From: a virus
IMG/VR virus record: IMGVR_UViG_3300010354_000743
Location: 1-22,331 of that record
Direction: 5' to 3' (one strand)
Length of the DNA stretch: 22,331 nucleotides
Within the stretch, counting starts at the first letter, position 1. Every line of letters begins with the position of its first letter. Both the position numbers and the translations under genes were made by a program. The notes beneath the pieces are model-generated. The model was not told where the DNA came from. It worked only from the letters and a program-made list of their open reading frames with translations, and ran no database searches. Of this stretch, positions 5,772-13,479 are shown one piece after another.

Positions 5772-8700
5772 CTATACTTTTACGTAAACAGTTTTTGTCA
5801 TAATAATAGGTACACCAGAAGAACCATACGAAGTATATTGCCCTATATTATCATATTTATCTAAAGATCCTCCACCTTGCCTATAAAGTTTTACTCCAGG
5901 GTTTTTGCGTTCAAAGTCTTTCTTTGCTTGTTCTTTTTTTCTTCTTTCTCTTTCAGCAGCAGCACCACCAAAGAACCCATATTTATCCCACCATGGACGA
6001 TCGGCTTGTATTTGAGCAGATCTTCTTGATGCTTGTTGAGATTGTCTACGATTTTGTTGCACTCTCAAATCAAAAAGAGTTTGTTGGTTTACTGGGTTGT
6101 CTGGAACCCACCTAGTTCCATTCCATAAAACTGATTTCCCATTTAATTTAGATTTTTCTCCTATAGTGTGCGTACTTCCTCTTTCTGGTTGTATTTCCTT
6201 TTTAACAACACCACTTGCAATTGCTGTCGTAAGTTCATTCAAAAACTCTTTATACTGTGGATGATTTGTAAAATTCTTTCCATATAATTCTTCCAGGTTT
6301 TCAAGAGATCCCAATTCTAAAAGAGCAGCAGGAGCTTGTCCTGCCAATCTAATTGTTCTATTTTGCTCAGTATCTATTCCATGATATCCTCCAGCAGTTT
6401 TGAATATTGAAGAATATTTTTCCAAAACTGGAGCAAGTTTTTCTGCTAAAGCACGATCTTGTGCATCATCTTTTTGAATTCTTGCTAAAAATCCTTTTCC
6501 TCCCTTACGAACATTAGCATCTAAATGGAAAGGTATTACAGAAGTTCCTTTTTTAGATTGATTTACAAGGAAATTATCATAATCTTCATAATTTCCAAAT
6601 TCTTCTGGAGTCATTATTTTGACTCTGTATCCTTGCTTTTTCAAACGTTCTGCAACATATTTCGCAATGCTATCTTGATATTCTCTTTCTCTTCCATCTG
6701 CGCCAGTTTTTGAGGCTGCATCAAATGTATTTCCTCCACGTTTATCTGGAATTAATCTTTCATTTCCAGGTTTTACATGATCTAGTGGAATAATAATATC
6801 ATATTCTCCTGTTGATCCTCCTTTTGGTTTTGATGCTTGTTCTAGGTTTGTTTTTGTTACATCCAATCCACCAGCGTAAGTATTGATAAAAGCTTTATGC
6901 CACTCTGAAGTTCCTTCAAGATGAGTATGAACTGCAGAACTACTTCCATATGCGGAAGACGCTCCTGGTCTTCCACCTTGAGTTCCAAAAAAAGTTCCTC
7001 CATTAAGAACTTTTCCATCAATACTTCTAGGGATGTTTTCTACGTGATGATATCTTGCAATAACCTTTCCAGTTTTTATATCTTCAAATCTAAGTGCATG
7101 TGGACCTTCAACAACTGCTTTTGCTTTTATTCCTAAAGGAACCACTAATGGTGCTCCTTCTCCCTCTAACATTTGAGAACCGCCATGAATTTGCGAGGTA
7201 ATTCCATAATCTCTTACTAATAATCCTCCTCTAACATCTTCACTACCATGATGCAAATAATCAGTTGGAGCAGATTCTCCAGGTTTTACTTGACGATATC
7301 CTGCTTGCCCAGACATTACAAGTAAATACTTTGCTTTTTCTTGAGAATTTGGAGATGGGGCAGCAGATTCCAAATTGACTGCTCCATCAGCTACCTTTAG
7401 TTTTCCTCCAGATTTTTGTGCATTAAAATTATCTTTAATTAGATCTGTAAATTTTGTTCCCTTAGTATTAAATCCATCAACGCCAACTTCTCCAGTTTCT
7501 AACCAATTTTTAGCACCACTCCAACCTTGATTATGAGCATATCCAAGAATTTGAAGTTTTCTTTCTGTATTAGCTTCTCTATATTCTTTACTAGAATTCA
7601 TTAAATATCTGTGGTTTGCAATTGTATATCCTGCAAACATTTGTTCTTGGAAAGATGAATTTTTTCTAAAAGCTTGACGAGCAGAATCATCATGTCCAGG
7701 ATTTCTAATTCCTAATATTTTTGCAGCGTCAGATTTTGCATCTGCTCCCATTTGATATCTTCCATCATAATGACCCCCACTGCCACCTGCAATATTATAA
7801 ACTCCTTTAGATTCTATTAGTGCTATAGAATTTCTATATAAGTCCCACTGGGATTCAGAAACTCCCAATTCCTTTTTAAGTAGTTCTGATGGAGCAGCAA
7901 CTGGAACATCTCCTCCACCCCCTTCATAATCACCAGAGGCGCCAGGTCCGCCAGGGCCGCCTGGACCACGTTGATTTCTTTCCAACATCTCATCACGACC
8001 AGTTGCACCCTTTCTAACTGTTCTTAAAGTTTCATTCAATTCCTTTTCAACAAGATTTGAAATTGCTCTACCTAAAAGATCTGCTTGGACTTGAGGATTT
8101 ACTGCATCTGGAGTGGCATTTGAAGGAATTTTTCCACCATCTGCCAAACCAGCAATTGCTCTTGTAACAGTTGATAACGTCATTGATGTTTGCTTTTCGG
8201 CGGAAGTTGTAATTAAATCACTTAATCCATCTCCAATCTGATTGAAAACTTGTCTACTCGTTCTTTGTCCCAACGTTGCATCCACAGCAGCTCCCATAAT
8301 TAACCCCAAGAATGAAGGAGCTTTTTTCAATTGCTCAGAACTTTTAAGTAAAGTTTTATATGGATTTGGTTTACTTAGTTCTTTTGGATTTGGATACAAT
8401 TTTTCAATTTGTTTTTTTCCACCAACGTCCTTCCCAGGGACTGTTTTTGGGGCAATATAACTCCTTTTTGCTTTTTTATTTTTATTTCCTCCTTGAATAT
8501 ACAAAGTTCTTTGTGCAGATCCCCCAACTAATTTACCACCTCTAGTTTGTATTCTTCCTCCACCAGCAGCTTTTTGCACTGGTTCATCTTTAGGAGCCCC
8601 CACCATAGCATCATATAAAGATCTTCCAAGAATATCACCAAGAATTGCTCCCCCAGTTGCTCCCAACCAAGTTCCAGCAAAAGGAATTGGAATTAAAGTT

Positions 8701-9923
8701 CCTAGCGCCCCTCCAATAGCAGTACCGACAGCATTTCCAACGGCACCAGCAGCTGCTCTTCCAGGTTTTTCTCTAAAAACAAATACACTAACTAAAAAGT
8801 CAACAATTGGACCAATTAAGGGAATTCTACCAAAACCTTTTGATATTCCTTTAACTGCGCCCTTAAATCCACCCTTTCCTAATGCTCTAGTCATTAGTCT
8901 TCCAGGAGCCTTTTGCACACCTTTTTTGAGAAGACTACTTCCACCTTTTTGCGCTAATCCTTCTCCCGCTTCCTGAGCGACAATTCTTCCAGACTTAATT
9001 GCTCTATCTACTGCTGCTTTTGCTTGCTGAGCAGTTTTACCATTCGCACGGGCATTTTCATAAATTCTAGCGGCATTATTACCATAACGTCTTTCAATTA
9101 ATTTTGATTGAGCATCTCTTCCAAGATAATTTCTAAGATTTACATTTGGTTTAGTAGATCCACCTCTTGGACCACCTCTTGGACCACCTCTTGGACCACC
9201 TCTTGGACCTCCACCTCCTTTTGGACGATTTAAACCTGGAATATTTTTTCCTTTAGATAATAAAATTCCTACAGCAATTGCGCCATTAATAAAAATGTTT
9301 AATTGCTTTGAAAACTCATCAAATTTTTTAGTTGCTTCCTTTCCACCAACCTTTCCAACTAATCCACGAACCTCATCATATTTTGTATAACTAAAGTCAA
9401 TAAAATTAACCAAAGAATTTAAAGTCGTATTCAAAACAGTATCAGCAAACTTTGTAATTGGTTTTATTGCAGAAACTACACCTTGAAGTTTACTTAAATT
9501 TTCTGGAGTAAAATATGTAAAAAATAGTTTTCCTAAAATTGTCCAGAATAAAAATCTTTTTATACTATCAAAAATTCCAATTTTTGGAAGATTAACTCCA
9601 GATATTCCTTTCTTACCTGCAACTTTTTTTTCTTCTAGTTTATCTTCCCTTCTTTTCCTTTTACTATACAACTCTTGTTTTTTCTTAAAAGACTCTGATT
9701 TTTTTGAAAGTAAAAGATTACTTTTCAACAACTTGTCTGTTGATATAACTTGTGTTTTTATATTGATAATTTTTTTTCTTACCACTAAAGATCCAGATTT
9801 TTCTTCCTTACTTTTTTGAAGTAGAGATTTTTTATCGGAAGAAACCTTTACTGTTTTATTAGAATATTTGACAATTGCAGATGAAGATGATCCTGGAAGT
9901 AATTTTTGAGTATTGATTGCCAT
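5772..9923 (-). CDS. Tape-measure-like tail protein with three peptidoglycan-hydrolase-like domains
   Basis: A 1383-aa modular tail protein. The N-terminus (1-110) is Lys/Ser-rich and helical. Residues 116-134 hold FLFWTILGKLFF, shared with the 887-aa neighbour. A GGPR repeat tract follows (about 239-254), then Gly/Ala-rich hydrophobic stretches (about 330-445). Domain A (about 680-830) is lysozyme/transglycosylase-like: IALIESKG with candidate catalytic E704, then GRYQMG and AGYTIANHRYL. Domain B (about 866-1020) is M23-like: H892-x3-D896 and H999-T-H1001 match the zinc-site pattern of lysostaphin-type peptidases. Domain C (about 1038-1240) is amidase_3-like: H1049, E1079/E1081, H1133 and E1203 in LLELGSLEN. 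Together these could cut glycan strands, peptide cross-links and the amide bond during injection. A strong GGAGGA ribosome site precedes the ATG, inside the end of the 887-aa gene. The tape-measure-like label rests on position and composition; it could instead be a hub or tail-tip lysin. Confidence 0.8.
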   Translation of the reverse strand: MAINTQKLLPGSSSSAIVKYSNKTVKVSSDKKSLLQKSKEEKSGSLVVRKKIINIKTQVISTDKLLKSNLLLSKKSESFKKKQELYSKRKRREDKLEEKKVAGKKGISGVNLPKIGIFDSIKRFLFWTILGKLFFTYFTPENLSKLQGVVSAIKPITKFADTVLNTTLNSLVNFIDFSYTKYDEVRGLVGKVGGKEATKKFDEFSKQLNIFINGAIAVGILLSKGKNIPGLNRPKGGGGPRGGPRGGPRGGPRGGSTKPNVNLRNYLGRDAQSKLIERRYGNNAARIYENARANGKTAQQAKAAVDRAIKSGRIVAQEAGEGLAQKGGSSLLKKGVQKAPGRLMTRALGKGGFKGAVKGISKGFGRIPLIGPIVDFLVSVFVFREKPGRAAAGAVGNAVGTAIGGALGTLIPIPFAGTWLGATGGAILGDILGRSLYDAMVGAPKDEPVQKAAGGGRIQTRGGKLVGGSAQRTLYIQGGNKNKKAKRSYIAPKTVPGKDVGGKKQIEKLYPNPKELSKPNPYKTLLKSSEQLKKAPSFLGLIMGAAVDATLGQRTSRQVFNQIGDGLSDLITTSAEKQTSMTLSTVTRAIAGLADGGKIPSNATPDAVNPQVQADLLGRAISNLVEKELNETLRTVRKGATGRDEMLERNQRGPGGPGGPGASGDYEGGGGDVPVAAPSELLKKELGVSESQWDLYRNSIALIESKGVYNIAGGSGGHYDGRYQMGADAKSDAAKILGIRNPGHDDSARQAFRKNSSFQEQMFAGYTIANHRYLMNSSKEYREANTERKLQILGYAHNQGWSGAKNWLETGEVGVDGFNTKGTKFTDLIKDNFNAQKSGGKLKVADGAVNLESAAPSPNSQEKAKYLLVMSGQAGYRQVKPGESAPTDYLHHGSEDVRGGLLVRDYGITSQIHGGSQMLEGEGAPLVVPLGIKAKAVVEGPHALRFEDIKTGKVIARYHHVENIPRSIDGKVLNGGTFFGTQGGRPGASSAYGSSSAVHTHLEGTSEWHKAFINTYAGGLDVTKTNLEQASKPKGGSTGEYDIIIPLDHVKPGNERLIPDKRGGNTFDAASKTGADGREREYQDSIAKYVAERLKKQGYRVKIMTPEEFGNYEDYDNFLVNQSKKGTSVIPFHLDANVRKGGKGFLARIQKDDAQDRALAEKLAPVLEKYSSIFKTAGGYHGIDTEQNRTIRLAGQAPAALLELGSLENLEELYGKNFTNHPQYKEFLNELTTAIASGVVKKEIQPERGSTHTIGEKSKLNGKSVLWNGTRWVPDNPVNQQTLFDLRVQQNRRQSQQASRRSAQIQADRPWWDKYGFFGGAAAERERRKKEQAKKDFERKNPGVKLYRQGGGSLDKYDNIGQYTSYGSSGVPIIMTKTVYVKV
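9160..9207 (+). repeat. 12-bp tandem repeat, four perfect copies
   Basis: The unit CCACCTCTTGGA (plus strand) occurs four times in a row inside the 1383-aa gene. On the coding strand it encodes a GGPR-type run joining the basic N-terminal part to the rest of the protein. Identical copies suggest recent slippage, so copy number may vary between relatives. It probably forms a flexible linker. Confidence 0.9.
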
Positions 9924-9927
9924 GAAA

Positions 9928-12591
9928 CTATCCTCCTATACCATAGTAAATACTCATAATTTTAGAACGAAATTCCATAGTATCACCATCCATTGGTTCA
10001 GATGGAACATTAGGAGCTTTTGGAGTTCCAAGTTTTCCAGCAAAACCACCTTTACGTCCAGCATCAATAACTTCACTTGGCAAATTAATTACTCCACCAA
10101 TACCATTAGTTAGAGGTCCAATATTTTTATTTCGATATCCTTTCTTTGCCCACATGGAGTCATAATCCATATTTGCAATTCTTGTTCTAATATCATCAAG
10201 TCCACCACTCTCAACAAATTGTTTAGGGAATATTTCATGATGTTCCCCAGGTTGAACCGCAACTTGTAAAAGTTGAGTATCTCCTCCAAATTTACTAGAT
10301 CTCTCGCCAGTTTGAGTAGTTACTGGACCACCAACTTCTCTCCTTTGTGGTTGAATTAATTTAATAAAGTTCTTCTTGGGCCTAGTATTTTGCGCCAAGA
10401 GAGATCCTCCATCCTGTTTTTTTAGAAAAGAATCATATCCGAGTTGAAGTGCCAATGCTCCCCAACCAATTGGTCCAGGAATCATCGAAAGAACAGAAAG
10501 TCCTGCCCCTGCCCAATCACCTTCTTTTACTCTCATACCAGCATCTATTGCACCTAAAGCAATACCAACTCCAGGTACGAATCTACCAGCAGTTTTTCCA
10601 AGACCTCTTGCTCCTTTAAGAGATGCTGTAGTATATCCCTTTGTCATTAACTGTTTTGCTTTTGCACTCTTAGAATATTTTCCTGTATTGATTTTATTCA
10701 TCAAACGCATACCCTTTGTTAGGGTTTGTGGTTTAACAATTTGTTCTGTTGCTCCAGGAAGTCTTAAAAAGGATCCAGATCCCATAGGAGCAGCAACATC
10801 AATAATATCTCCAGTTCCAGCAACTCCTCTATTAAAACCTCTTTCAAGCATTCCTCTACCCGCAGATGTAGAGCTGGTTGCAAATCTCTGTGCGACTGGT
10901 AAATCTGGAGTCATAAAAGCATTACGAGTCATGTAAATATTTTGAGGAGATCCAGATCTAAATCCAAGTCCTTTTTGCTGCCAATCTTTGTAAAGATTTG
11001 CTTGACGAATAGAAGAAGCAGCTTCTTTGGAAGTTCCATGATATCCCTTTCTTATTGTTCCCCCCAATCCCTTTCCTCTAATACCTTGGAAAGGTCTAGA
11101 AACTGCTTTTAAAACTCCTCTTCCAAATTGAGATGCTGTTTCCCACCAATTTTTATTTTGCGATTGTTTTTTGACTGTTCCACCGTCTTTAAATCTTTGT
11201 GGTTTTTCTAGATCAAAAGATTCTTTTTCAAAATCAATTTTAGGTTTTGCAATTTTGACTGAGGAATTTAGATAATCTCCAATTAAACCTCCTCCCTTTG
11301 CCAGTCTAATTCCATCGGACCATTTAGGAATATTAGCGCCAGGTCCACCATATAGAGCATTCAATCCCAATAAATTATTGGCACCAACTGCATCAACTGC
11401 TGCCTTATTCATTACAACCTCTCCAGGTTGTGCAGCAATCAATTGAGTATCTGGACCAGCTCCAGTAATTCTTACTCCACTATTTCTATTAATATTTCCA
11501 CCACTTGCAAATAAAGATGCTGCAGGAATATTTTTAACAAGTCCTCCAGTATTAAATAAGTGTCCTCCAAGTCCACCAGAACTTGCATAATCTAAAAATG
11601 ATTTTTGAGGACTTGGTTTTTCACCATAATCTGGTTTTAATTCTTTAAATTCTTTATCCTGTTTTTCTACTCTATCTCCCCAAGAACTTCCCGCCCAAGC
11701 AGCAAGAACTCCAGTTCCAATTGCTGCAGTAAGAGCAGGATTCATTGCAGCAAGAGCAATTAATCCTCTACCAAGTGTTCCAACAATTGTTGCAACAAAT
11801 CCCCCTAAAGGTGTGCAAAAAGCAAGAAACCCCGTAAGAATTGCAGGAAACCAATCCTTAACAAATCTGGTTAAACTTTGAACTTTTTTCTGATTGGCAG
11901 GATTTCCCATCCAATCAATTAATTTAAAAAATGTTTTTCCTAATAAAACCCAAAAAAGAAATTTAAAAATTCTATCAAAAATACTTTGAAAGGGAGCAAT
12001 AAGAGTTTTAGCAACTCCTTTTAAAGCAGATCCTAACCCACCTTTTTCTAAACTTTCTTCTTTTTGTCTTCTCCTTTCATTTTCCGATTTTTTTCTATCA
12101 GAATTTAAAGAATTATTTAAAATTTTATTTTGATCTTTTACAGAGGACGCAATAGACTGAAGACCTTTTTTAATATCCTCAAATAATTTAGATAGTGACA
12201 GTTGTTCTTTTTTAGTATTAGTTGTAGATTCTACTTTTTGATTTGGTTGTTTCTTTTCTGGTGCTTGAGGTAGTAACTTATTTTGAGGTATTGATTTTGG
12301 TTTTGGTGTTGCTGTCTTTTTAGTTGCCTTTAAAGTGGAAACATTACCGACATTTATTTTTTTACTCTTTGGTTTAAATCTGCCAGTTTTATTTCTTACT
12401 CTTTTAAACTCATTTCTCAGTAATTCTGCCTCTTCTGTAGGAATTTTACTCTTGGTCATCTGTGCAGAGACCAAAGCTTCCTTCAGAAGAGTTTTATATG
12501 TTCCATAATCTAAATCAAATATATCCTGAAGACCAAGCAGCCTTAGAATTCTTTCGTCAATAATTTCTGTGACTAAATTCTTAGCTGCCAT
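9928..12591 (-). CDS. Tape-measure-like tail protein containing an ART-like segment
   Basis: An 887-aa protein just downstream of gp26, the usual tape-measure position. Residues 1-80 are helical. Residues 80-200 are Lys/Gln/Ser-rich and probably coiled. Residues 202-222 hold FKFLFWVLLGKTFF, shared with the 1383-aa protein, followed by hydrophobic Gly/Ala helices to about 300. At about 390-418 is QPGEVVMNKAAVDAVG, a motif common in phage tape-measure proteins; a second PGE motif (VQPGEHHEIFP) lies at about 781-791. Residues about 505-625 resemble an ADP-ribosyltransferase fold: GYHGTS with H518, NIYMT with Y553 and ATEQIV with E616, an H-Y-E arrangement. A Gly/Ala hydrophobic stretch (VPGVGIALGA, MIPGPIGWGALAL) follows. 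The ATG lies 11 bases inside the preceding 60-aa frame. The tail role is likely; the enzyme domain is a pattern-based inference. It may be the counterpart of T4 gp29, though no residue-level similarity is obvious to me. Confidence 0.7.
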   Translation of the reverse strand: MAAKNLVTEIIDERILRLLGLQDIFDLDYGTYKTLLKEALVSAQMTKSKIPTEEAELLRNEFKRVRNKTGRFKPKSKKINVGNVSTLKATKKTATPKPKSIPQNKLLPQAPEKKQPNQKVESTTNTKKEQLSLSKLFEDIKKGLQSIASSVKDQNKILNNSLNSDRKKSENERRRQKEESLEKGGLGSALKGVAKTLIAPFQSIFDRIFKFLFWVLLGKTFFKLIDWMGNPANQKKVQSLTRFVKDWFPAILTGFLAFCTPLGGFVATIVGTLGRGLIALAAMNPALTAAIGTGVLAAWAGSSWGDRVEKQDKEFKELKPDYGEKPSPQKSFLDYASSGGLGGHLFNTGGLVKNIPAASLFASGGNINRNSGVRITGAGPDTQLIAAQPGEVVMNKAAVDAVGANNLLGLNALYGGPGANIPKWSDGIRLAKGGGLIGDYLNSSVKIAKPKIDFEKESFDLEKPQRFKDGGTVKKQSQNKNWWETASQFGRGVLKAVSRPFQGIRGKGLGGTIRKGYHGTSKEAASSIRQANLYKDWQQKGLGFRSGSPQNIYMTRNAFMTPDLPVAQRFATSSTSAGRGMLERGFNRGVAGTGDIIDVAAPMGSGSFLRLPGATEQIVKPQTLTKGMRLMNKINTGKYSKSAKAKQLMTKGYTTASLKGARGLGKTAGRFVPGVGIALGAIDAGMRVKEGDWAGAGLSVLSMIPGPIGWGALALQLGYDSFLKKQDGGSLLAQNTRPKKNFIKLIQPQRREVGGPVTTQTGERSSKFGGDTQLLQVAVQPGEHHEIFPKQFVESGGLDDIRTRIANMDYDSMWAKKGYRNKNIGPLTNGIGGVINLPSEVIDAGRKGGFAGKLGTPKAPNVPSEPMDGDTMEFRSKIMSIYYGIGG

Positions 12592-12763
12592 TACGCTTAC
12601 TCTTTTGCTCTTCTTCTTCTAGATGATTGCTTAATAAAGTTACATAAATGTCCCTTTCCCAAGGTATCATATTTTCAATTTCTGTCAATGAATATTTATG
12701 GTACTGCATTAACGAAAAATTAAGTTTATAATATCCCTCTAGATCCATATGGATCATACTCAT
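12581..12763 (-). CDS. Small tail-assembly protein overlapping gp26, possible -1 frameshift extension
   Basis: A 60-aa frame: an N-terminal segment HMDLEGYYKLNF, a helical MQYHKYSLTEIENMIPWERDIYVTLL and a charged LEEEEQKSKR end. Its ATG overlaps the gp26 TGA (ATGA), and its own end overlaps the 887-aa tape-measure-like start by 11 bases. It can be made alone by coupled initiation. It can also be made as a gp26 fusion, because the slippery heptamer T_TTT_TTC at 12766-12772 puts ribosomes into exactly this frame, reading CGG then this ATG. By position it corresponds to the T extension of lambda-type tail chaperones. T4 gene 51 is another possible counterpart, but T4 gp51 is much longer and I cannot show similarity. 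The gene is real given its conserved-looking WERDIY helix and tight packing. Confidence 0.65.
   Translation of the reverse strand: MSMIHMDLEGYYKLNFSLMQYHKYSLTEIENMIPWERDIYVTLLSNHLEEEEQKSKRNGS
12742..12755 (-). other. Hairpin 3' of the gp26 slippery site
   Basis: On the minus strand this reads GATCCATATGGATC, a perfect inverted repeat able to form a GATCC stem with an ATAT loop. It begins 10 bases after the end of the T_TTT_TTC heptamer, close to the spacing of frameshift-stimulating structures. The stem is short, so it would be a weak stimulator. Confidence 0.5.
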
Positions 12764-13479
12764 CCGAAAAAACTAGAAAGACCCTCCAGTACAACTTCAC
12801 TTTCAATGCCAGTATTTGGATTAGTAACGCTTACTTTATGAGTAAGTTTAGGCATAGTATCAAAAAACTTTTCAACTTCTTTAAATTGATTAGTATTCAT
12901 TTGATCAATAAAATCAACCAATTCTTTTTTAGTAACCTCAGAAGATGTCCAAACTTCTTCTTCAGTAAAAATTTTATTAATGCAAGTTGCAATCAATTCA
13001 AACGATTTTTCCATAGTATTTTCAGTTGACATATCAAAGTTATTTTTAATGAATTGATCTAAAGATGGATATGTCATTTCCATCATAATATTATCATCAA
13101 CTTTAATAGTTGTTGTATGCTCTGGGTTTTTTTCTACATTAATATCATCAATATTAATTTTAACAGGAACTGAAGTTTCATCATCATCTGGGCAAATAAT
13201 ATTAACTTCAATTTCTTCCCCAACAGATTTTCCGCGAATATTGAGAAACAGATATTCAATATCAAAAGTTGGTAATGACTCTACTTTAATACCTTTGGTT
13301 TCAATGCAATTTTTAATTACTGTTTTAATTGCAGTAGTAATTTGCTTTGGATCTTCACTTTCTAAAGCGATTACTAGAAGTTTTTCTTCTCTTACTAAAA
13401 ATGGTCTATACTTAATTTTTTGACCAGATGAAGGTAGATCCAACTCATAAGTTGGTGTAGAAATTTTTGGTAAAGGCAT
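12760..13479 (-). CDS. gp26: gp26-like baseplate hub/tail assembly protein
   Basis: A 239-aa protein matching the T4 gp26 (T4_baseplate) family in its layout. The N-terminus has MPLPKISTPTYELDLPSSGQ, then YRPFLVREEKLLVIALES and LPTFDIEYLFLNIRGKSVGE. A C-terminal helical part carries MEKSFELIATCINKIF and a LVDFIDQMNTNQFKEVEKFF helix. The order of N-terminal recognition segment, FLVREEK and FDIEYLFLNIR is strongly diagnostic of this family, whose members lie just before the hub and tape-measure genes. It probably acts in hub assembly, perhaps as a tail-assembly chaperone. A good AGGAG ribosome site lies just before the ATG (complement of 13483-13487), and an AATAAATA late-type element lies upstream. 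The last codons read AGT TTT TTC GGA TGA, a canonical slippery site. Confidence 0.85.
   Translation of the reverse strand: MPLPKISTPTYELDLPSSGQKIKYRPFLVREEKLLVIALESEDPKQITTAIKTVIKNCIETKGIKVESLPTFDIEYLFLNIRGKSVGEEIEVNIICPDDDETSVPVKINIDDINVEKNPEHTTTIKVDDNIMMEMTYPSLDQFIKNNFDMSTENTMEKSFELIATCINKIFTEEEVWTSSEVTKKELVDFIDQMNTNQFKEVEKFFDTMPKLTHKVSVTNPNTGIESEVVLEGLSSFFG
12766..12772 (-). other. Candidate -1 ribosomal frameshift site T_TTT_TTC
   Basis: In the gp26 frame the codons run AGT TTT TTC GGA TGA. The heptamer T_TTT_TTC fits the X_XXY_YYZ rule. After a -1 slip the frame reads TTT TTT CGG ATG, entering the 60-aa frame exactly at its ATG. The fusion would be about 299 aa. A hairpin follows 10 bases downstream. 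Confidence 0.6.

What the first reader, a model, noticed from the sequence alone, without database searches (positions are those of the whole stretch)
10700..11075. ADP-ribosyltransferase-like segment inside a tape-measure-like protein
Residues about 505-625 of the 887-aa protein read GYHGTS (H518), then about 35 residues on NIYMT (Y553) with an A-x-x-FA after it, and later ATEQIV (E616). This fits the H-Y-E plan of PARP/diphtheria-toxin-type ARTs. It is flanked by Gly/Ala hydrophobic segments. If real, an enzyme carried in the tail tube could be delivered with the DNA and modify host proteins at once, as T4 Alt does from the head.
Basis: partly seen in the sequence, partly recalled or inferred. 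Interest (0 to 1): 0.76.

Follow-up and report, generated by a model that had tools for sequence, protein, structure and literature searches.

The report
ADP-ribosyltransferase-like cargo in cyanophage tail protein
A virus of cyanobacteria appears to carry, inside a tail protein whose relatives usually hold a cell-wall-cutting enzyme at that place, a diverged version of an enzyme that tags host molecules with ADP-ribose, but the enzyme's fold and activity remain unproven.

Summary
The motif is real: residues 513-625 of the 887-aa protein (9928-12591, minus strand) hold YHGTSKEAASSIR, an aromatic-MT motif followed by A-x-x-F, and ATEQIV. No Pfam, PHROGs or NCBIfam model hits it and both AlphaFold runs failed (pLDDT 39-40), so the fold is not shown. 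Sequence evidence still favours an HY-type ADP-ribosyltransferase (ART): the segment is homologous (0 of 1000 shuffles, z=8 with flanks) to a domain in the same slot of two other cyanophage contigs, which in turn matches ART-like inserts of cyanopodovirus internal virion proteins and a MuF fusion that Pfam calls ART-PolyVal (E=3e-12). Profiles place F559, not Y553, at the tyrosine site, and the two relatives lack E616, so catalysis is uncertain. The gene follows gp51 in T4-like cyanophages; its middle is an exchangeable slot, mostly for peptidoglycan hydrolases. One orthologue was detected in virions by mass spectrometry (PMC9602691). Independently, S-PM2's orthologue bears an R-S-E-type ART above Pfam cut-offs. 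Best reading: a tail-borne ART effector in a cargo-swapping slot. Virion-packaged ARTs are known; those I found described are head-packaged, so this is a new variant.

The parts
9928..12591 (-). 887-aa gp51-adjacent virion (tail) protein with exchangeable enzyme slot
   Evidence: ORF; synteny with cyanophage orthologues; PHROG 35029; S-SCSM1 orthologue ORF213 found in virions (PMC9602691)
10717..11055 (-). ART-like domain, residues 513-625 (H518 nt 11038-11040; Y553 nt 10933-10935; F559 nt 10915-10917; E616 nt 10744-10746)
   Evidence: Alignments and profile tests; no curated family match; AlphaFold uninformative
11281..11511 (-). Conserved DTQ...QPGE module, residues 361-437, which precedes the variable slot
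   Evidence: BLAST among orthologues, e.g. 64% identity over 67 aa with S-PM2p207; alignment A1
11698..11850 (-). N-terminal hydrophobic stretch, residues 248-298
   Evidence: Hydropathy scan
10390..10614 (-). Gly/Ala hydrophobic module, residues 660-734, shared with other proteins of this gene family and with mycobacteriophage tape measures
   Evidence: tblastn, BLAST E 6e-8 to 4e-6
5772..9923 (-). Partner 1383-aa protein with endolysin-like and Amidase_3 domains; shares an N-terminal stretch with the 887-aa protein
   Evidence: Pfam PF01520 E=1.4e-7, PHROG 5867 endolysin E=7.5e-59, shared stretch E=9e-9
12581..12763 (-). gp51-like baseplate hub assembly catalyst
   Evidence: PHROG 634 E=9.6e-29
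12760..13479 (-). gp26-like baseplate hub protein
   Evidence: PF12322 E=8e-75, PHROG 150

Best explanation
The 887-aa protein is the gp51-adjacent virion protein of a T4-like cyanophage. Its N-terminal half is conserved; its middle is a slot in which relatives carry peptidoglycan hydrolases or other modules. Here the slot holds a diverged HY-type ART-like domain followed by a Gly/Ala hydrophobic module, while the neighbouring 1383-aa protein supplies wall-cutting enzymes. Most likely the protein sits in the tail hub or tube, leaves with or ahead of the DNA on contraction, and its ART domain ADP-ribosylates a host target early in infection. Shown: sequence, synteny, slot variability, statistical similarity to ART domains; virion presence of one orthologue (literature). 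Inferred: the fold, the catalytic residues, activity, tail location, entry into the cytoplasm and the target.
For: Slot cargo varies among orthologues: M23, glucosaminidase, GH19, Hydrolase_2, lysozymes, M15, Amidase_2. Residues 496-660 align with the L034 slot domain, 0 of 1000 shuffles, z=8.2. A profile of P60-type domains alone finds L034 at E=3.8e-6 and the window domain at E=0.01, above all 10,000 shuffles; with Schubert and L098/L099 added, E=3.8e-4. Three-member family vs seven ART-PolyVal-like domains: hhalign 68%, 4.8e-5. Schubert domain is ART-PolyVal at E=3e-12. Profile's only PDB matches, sub-threshold, are two ARTs. S-PM2p207, same gene, carries an R-S-E ART over Pfam cut-offs. 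S-SCSM1 orthologue and its partner were detected in virions.
Against: No curated model matches the window domain. Both AlphaFold models are below pLDDT 41 and Foldseek found no ART. Without the flanks the match to L034 is weak (z about 3), and the profile match rests mainly on YHGTSKEAASSIRQA. The tyrosine site holds Phe and relatives lack the Glu. P60, S-CBP42 and Schubert were found with L034 as query, so tests using them are not fully independent of L034. Virion detection in S-SCSM1 may include carry-over, as its authors say.
Confidence: 0.5

Rival explanations
1. The domain is an ART relic: the fold is kept but catalysis is lost, and it now serves as a spacer or as a binding module inside the tail protein.
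For: F559 instead of Tyr, and no E616 equivalent in L033/L034; other slot members have no recognisable enzyme at all.
Against: H518 and a plausible ATEQIV Glu are kept in the window protein; another member of the wider set has Trp at the Tyr site (GIWFT, L183), so the site tolerates other aromatics.
Confidence: 0.2
2. It is not an ART: the YHGTS...A..F...E string is a chance likeness in a diverged linker or in an unknown slot module.
For: No curated family match, failed structure prediction; core-only match to L034 is z about 3; the loose motif occurs 2.7 times per 556,070 shuffled residues.
Against: Whole-segment homology to L034 and profile support above 10,000 shuffles; real ORFs with the loose motif are all ART-type.
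Confidence: 0.22
3. The ART-like enzyme does not act on entry: it hydrolyses NAD or modifies nucleic acid or phage components inside the producing cell, and is only later built into the tail.
For: ARTs of these clades include NADases, and an action tied to the packaging apparatus was proposed as an alternative (PMC9503650); an NMNAT was found in S-SCSM1 virions, hinting at NAD handling.
Against: No direct evidence for any substrate; a place inside a virion protein fits delivery at least as well.
Confidence: 0.08

Closest known systems
ART-PolyVal (PF18760) and other HY-[EDQ]-clade ARTs of phage polyvalent and MuF-fusion proteins (PMC5512222, PMC9503650)
   Same: YHGT strand, SIR helix, GF..aromatic strand, A..F/Y helix, late E-hh strand; embedded in a virion protein
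   Different: Below every curated cut-off; Phe at the Tyr site; compact, with a short gap to the Glu; host protein is a tail rather than a head protein
S-PM2p207 (Synechococcus phage S-PM2)
   Same: Orthologous gene position and DTQ module; carries an ART
   Different: ART is of the R-S-E type, lies N-terminal of the module, and a tail lysozyme is also present
S-SCSM1 ORF213
   Same: Orthologous scaffold, same gene position, detected in virions (PMC9602691)
   Different: Cargo is a glucosaminidase, a peptidoglycan hydrolase
Domain in IMG/VR cyanophage contigs L033/L099 and L034/L098
   Same: Same slot of the orthologous protein; homologous H-type domain and C-terminal flank
   Different: Tyr present (GVYGS) but no Glu at the E616 position
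T4 Alt
   Same: ART carried in a T4-like virion and thought to act at entry (works-like comparison)
   Different: R-S-E type, packaged in the head, a protein of its own
Internal virion proteins of cyanopodoviruses P60 and S-CBP42
   Same: H-type ART-like insert in a virion protein of a cyanophage
   Different: Podovirus internal protein, not a tail slot; keeps Tyr and Glu motifs

Membership tests
ART superfamily, HY-[EDQ] clade (ART-PolyVal-like) | Match to a curated ART model above cut-off | tested here: not met
   No match for the window domain in Pfam, PHROGs or NCBIfam
ART superfamily, HY-[EDQ] clade (ART-PolyVal-like) | Significant sequence homology to confirmed members | tested here: inconclusive
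   Supported through L033/L034 and P60-type domains, E 0.01 to 3.8e-4 and above all shuffles; window domain alone is borderline
ART superfamily, HY-[EDQ] clade (ART-PolyVal-like) | Histidine in strand 1 | tested here: met
   H518, invariant in alignment A10
ART superfamily, HY-[EDQ] clade (ART-PolyVal-like) | Tyrosine (aromatic) in strand 2 | tested here: inconclusive
   Aligned residue is F559; Y553 fits only with an insertion
ART superfamily, HY-[EDQ] clade (ART-PolyVal-like) | Glu/Asp/Gln in strand 5 | tested here: inconclusive
   E616 in ATEQIV resembles ATETLIFDP of L269, but the homologues L033/L034 lack it
ART superfamily, HY-[EDQ] clade (ART-PolyVal-like) | ART fold | tested here: inconclusive
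   Two AlphaFold models with pLDDT 40.0 and 39.2; Foldseek meaningless
ART superfamily, HY-[EDQ] clade (ART-PolyVal-like) | NAD-dependent ADP-ribosylation | not testable with these tools
   Needs a biochemical assay
T4 Alt family | R-S-E type ART domain | tested here: not met
   No match of the window protein to PF01129/PF03496; only S-PM2p207 has that type
gp51-adjacent virion protein of T4-like cyanophages | Gene directly after gp26 and gp51, before a wall-hydrolase partner | tested here: met
gp51-adjacent virion protein of T4-like cyanophages | Conserved N-terminal half and DTQ module | tested here: met
Tail tape measure protein | Sets tail length, lies in the tube lumen | not testable with these tools
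   Only position and weak profile hits

The most novel reading that the evidence does not exclude
The gp51-adjacent tail protein of T4-like cyanophages is an effector-exchange slot that has at least twice independently taken up ARTs (H-type here and in L033/L034, R-S-E type in S-PM2), so that the tail rather than the head delivers a host-modifying enzyme at the moment of entry.
Probability: 0.35. Interest if true: 0.72.

Novelty: new variant of a known kind. Interest (0 to 1): 0.5.

Why it matters
ARTs packaged in phage virions are a recognised first-strike strategy, but the surveys I read (PMC9503650, PMC5512222, PMC7824862) describe head, MuF, portal or polyvalent proteins. A swap slot in a tail protein that holds either wall-cutting enzymes or ARTs would show a second delivery route, in one of the abundant virus groups of the sea. 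S-PM2 is a cultured isolate, so the idea can be tested directly there.

Tried and rejected
Close-relative searches with the domain alone gave nothing in viral contigs, genome contigs or phage records. Two AlphaFold jobs (3 and 6 sequences) and one Foldseek search were uninformative. A DNA pattern scan for YHGTS..A..I found one chance hit in a contig of an RNA phage. A PF18760 hit in G014 lay in an unrelated ORF. The NCBIfam triculamin match and the phmmer PDB hit to a tail spike were judged chance. Y553 as the active-site aromatic was set aside in favour of F559 because several alignments agree on a gap-free register there. The Tsukamurella plasmid hit covers only the hydrophobic module. Proteins of four further cyanophages that share the hydrophobic module have no ART next to it.

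Full report
WHAT IS THERE. The window is a 22.3-kb virus record with the late-gene order of a T4-like cyanophage: gp26-like (T4_baseplate, E=8e-75), gp51-like, the 887-aa protein, a 1383-aa protein with endolysin-like and Amidase_3 domains, a tail protein and a gp5-like hub lysozyme.

THE SCAFFOLD. The 887-aa protein belongs to the family that follows gp51 in T4-like cyanophages. The N-terminal half and a short GAGPDTQLIAAQPGE module are shared. What follows the module (in S-PM2 also what precedes it) changes from phage to phage. Pfam finds M23 peptidase, glucosaminidase, GH19, cell-wall hydrolase, phage tail lysozyme, phage lysozyme, M15 and Amidase_2 there. The partner gene also carries hydrolases, for example Hydrolase_2 and VanY in L034 and M23 in S-PM2. 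In the window the slot has no recognisable hydrolase, while the partner has more than one. In S-SCSM1 both proteins (ORF213, ORF214) were detected in purified virions by mass spectrometry, though those authors allow for carry-over (PMC9602691).

THE DOMAIN. No curated family matches residues 496-647. Among roughly 200 related contigs from three capped and partly overlapping scans, only two others, L033 and L034 (also held as L099 and L098), have an H-type domain in the slot. The window segment 496-660 aligns with L034 along its whole length, including the flanking SGKY..AKA; no shuffle of 1000 scores as high. The core without flanks is weaker, z about 3. The L034 domain's weak tblastn hits (E 0.3-6) in 50,697 phage records fell in four phages or contigs, three of which carry ART-like domains in virion proteins: P60, S-CBP42 and Schubert. 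Schubert's domain is ART-PolyVal by Pfam. A profile made only from P60-type domains finds L034 at E=3.8e-6 and the window domain at E=0.01, above 10,000 shuffles; with Schubert added E=0.0022, with L098/L099 added as well 3.8e-4. These E-values refer to about 1422 ORFs. hhalign of the three-member family with seven ART-PolyVal-like domains gives probability 68% over the first half only; the window sequence alone is borderline, 21.9 against a maximum of 21.87 in 200 shuffles. The family profile's only two PDB matches, at E 0.38 and 0.56, are both ART toxins (named only, not fetched).

THE ACTIVE SITE. H518 is invariant. In a gap-free register the ART tyrosine column holds F559, not Y553. E616 lies in ATEQIVKP, which resembles ATETLIFDP of L269, but L033 and L034 lack this Glu. 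So the domain may be active, altered, or a relic.

AN INDEPENDENT CASE. S-PM2p207, in the same gene position and with the same module (64% identity over 67 aa), has an N-terminal R-S-E type ART over both Pfam cut-offs (PF01129 9.9e-7, PF03496 3.5e-6 for the isolated region), related to a domain of head-associated proteins in Pseudomonas phages. By eye R134, S160 and E203-x-E205 fit the R-S-E plan (positions). GenBank calls it hypothetical. An ART in this gene is thus supported without relying on the window.

STRUCTURE. Both AlphaFold jobs failed (pLDDT 40.0 and 39.2) and Foldseek found nothing. This neither supports nor refutes the fold.

MECHANISM. Inferred: the protein is carried in the tail, the partner opens the wall, and the ART-like domain with its hydrophobic neighbour enters with the DNA and modifies an unknown host target. 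Membership: ART-like by homology, but not a certified member of any ART family, since curated cut-offs are not met and the fold is untested. It is not a member of the Alt family; it may work like Alt.

NOVELTY. Virion-packaged ARTs are established and enriched in myoviruses (PMC9503650); a head location is what those authors infer. An ART in a tail-protein slot is a new variant of that kind, if the reading holds.

Noticed in passing
L014 4281-7784 (S-PM2, AJ630128 151356-154859): S-PM2p207, annotated hypothetical, has an N-terminal R-S-E type ART (residues about 65-220) and a C-terminal phage tail lysozyme in one polypeptide.
   Followed up: partly
L095 (P60), L096 (S-CBP42), L269: Internal virion proteins of cyanopodoviruses carry a YH(A/G)T...GVY...ETxxFDP ART-like insert that Pfam does not call.
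   Followed up: partly
L037, L046, L053, L058, L080 and others, cargo slot: A recurrent unnamed slot module with the text LPGTGxVMAPxxxxLGYQNKFLGMNI, no Pfam match.
   Followed up: no
L015, L024, L025, L027, L049, L070, L085, cargo slot: A second recurrent unnamed slot module, WWNKGRNVRVPNE...GPTPAIRQ, no Pfam match.
   Followed up: no
window 5772-9923: The partner protein combines an endolysin-like region (678-855) and Amidase_3 (1074-1213), with a stretch between them that looks M23-like by eye.
   Followed up: partly
L007 4572-6704 (S-B43): The orthologous 710-aa ORF is not annotated as a gene in the S-B43 record.
   Followed up: no
window 10215-10290 (approximate): A second DTQ...QPGE-like module (FGGDTQLLQVAVQPGEHHEIFP) follows the hydrophobic segment; similar second modules (TADRQ...QPGEYVLP) end many relatives, so the cargo often lies between two such modules.
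   Followed up: no
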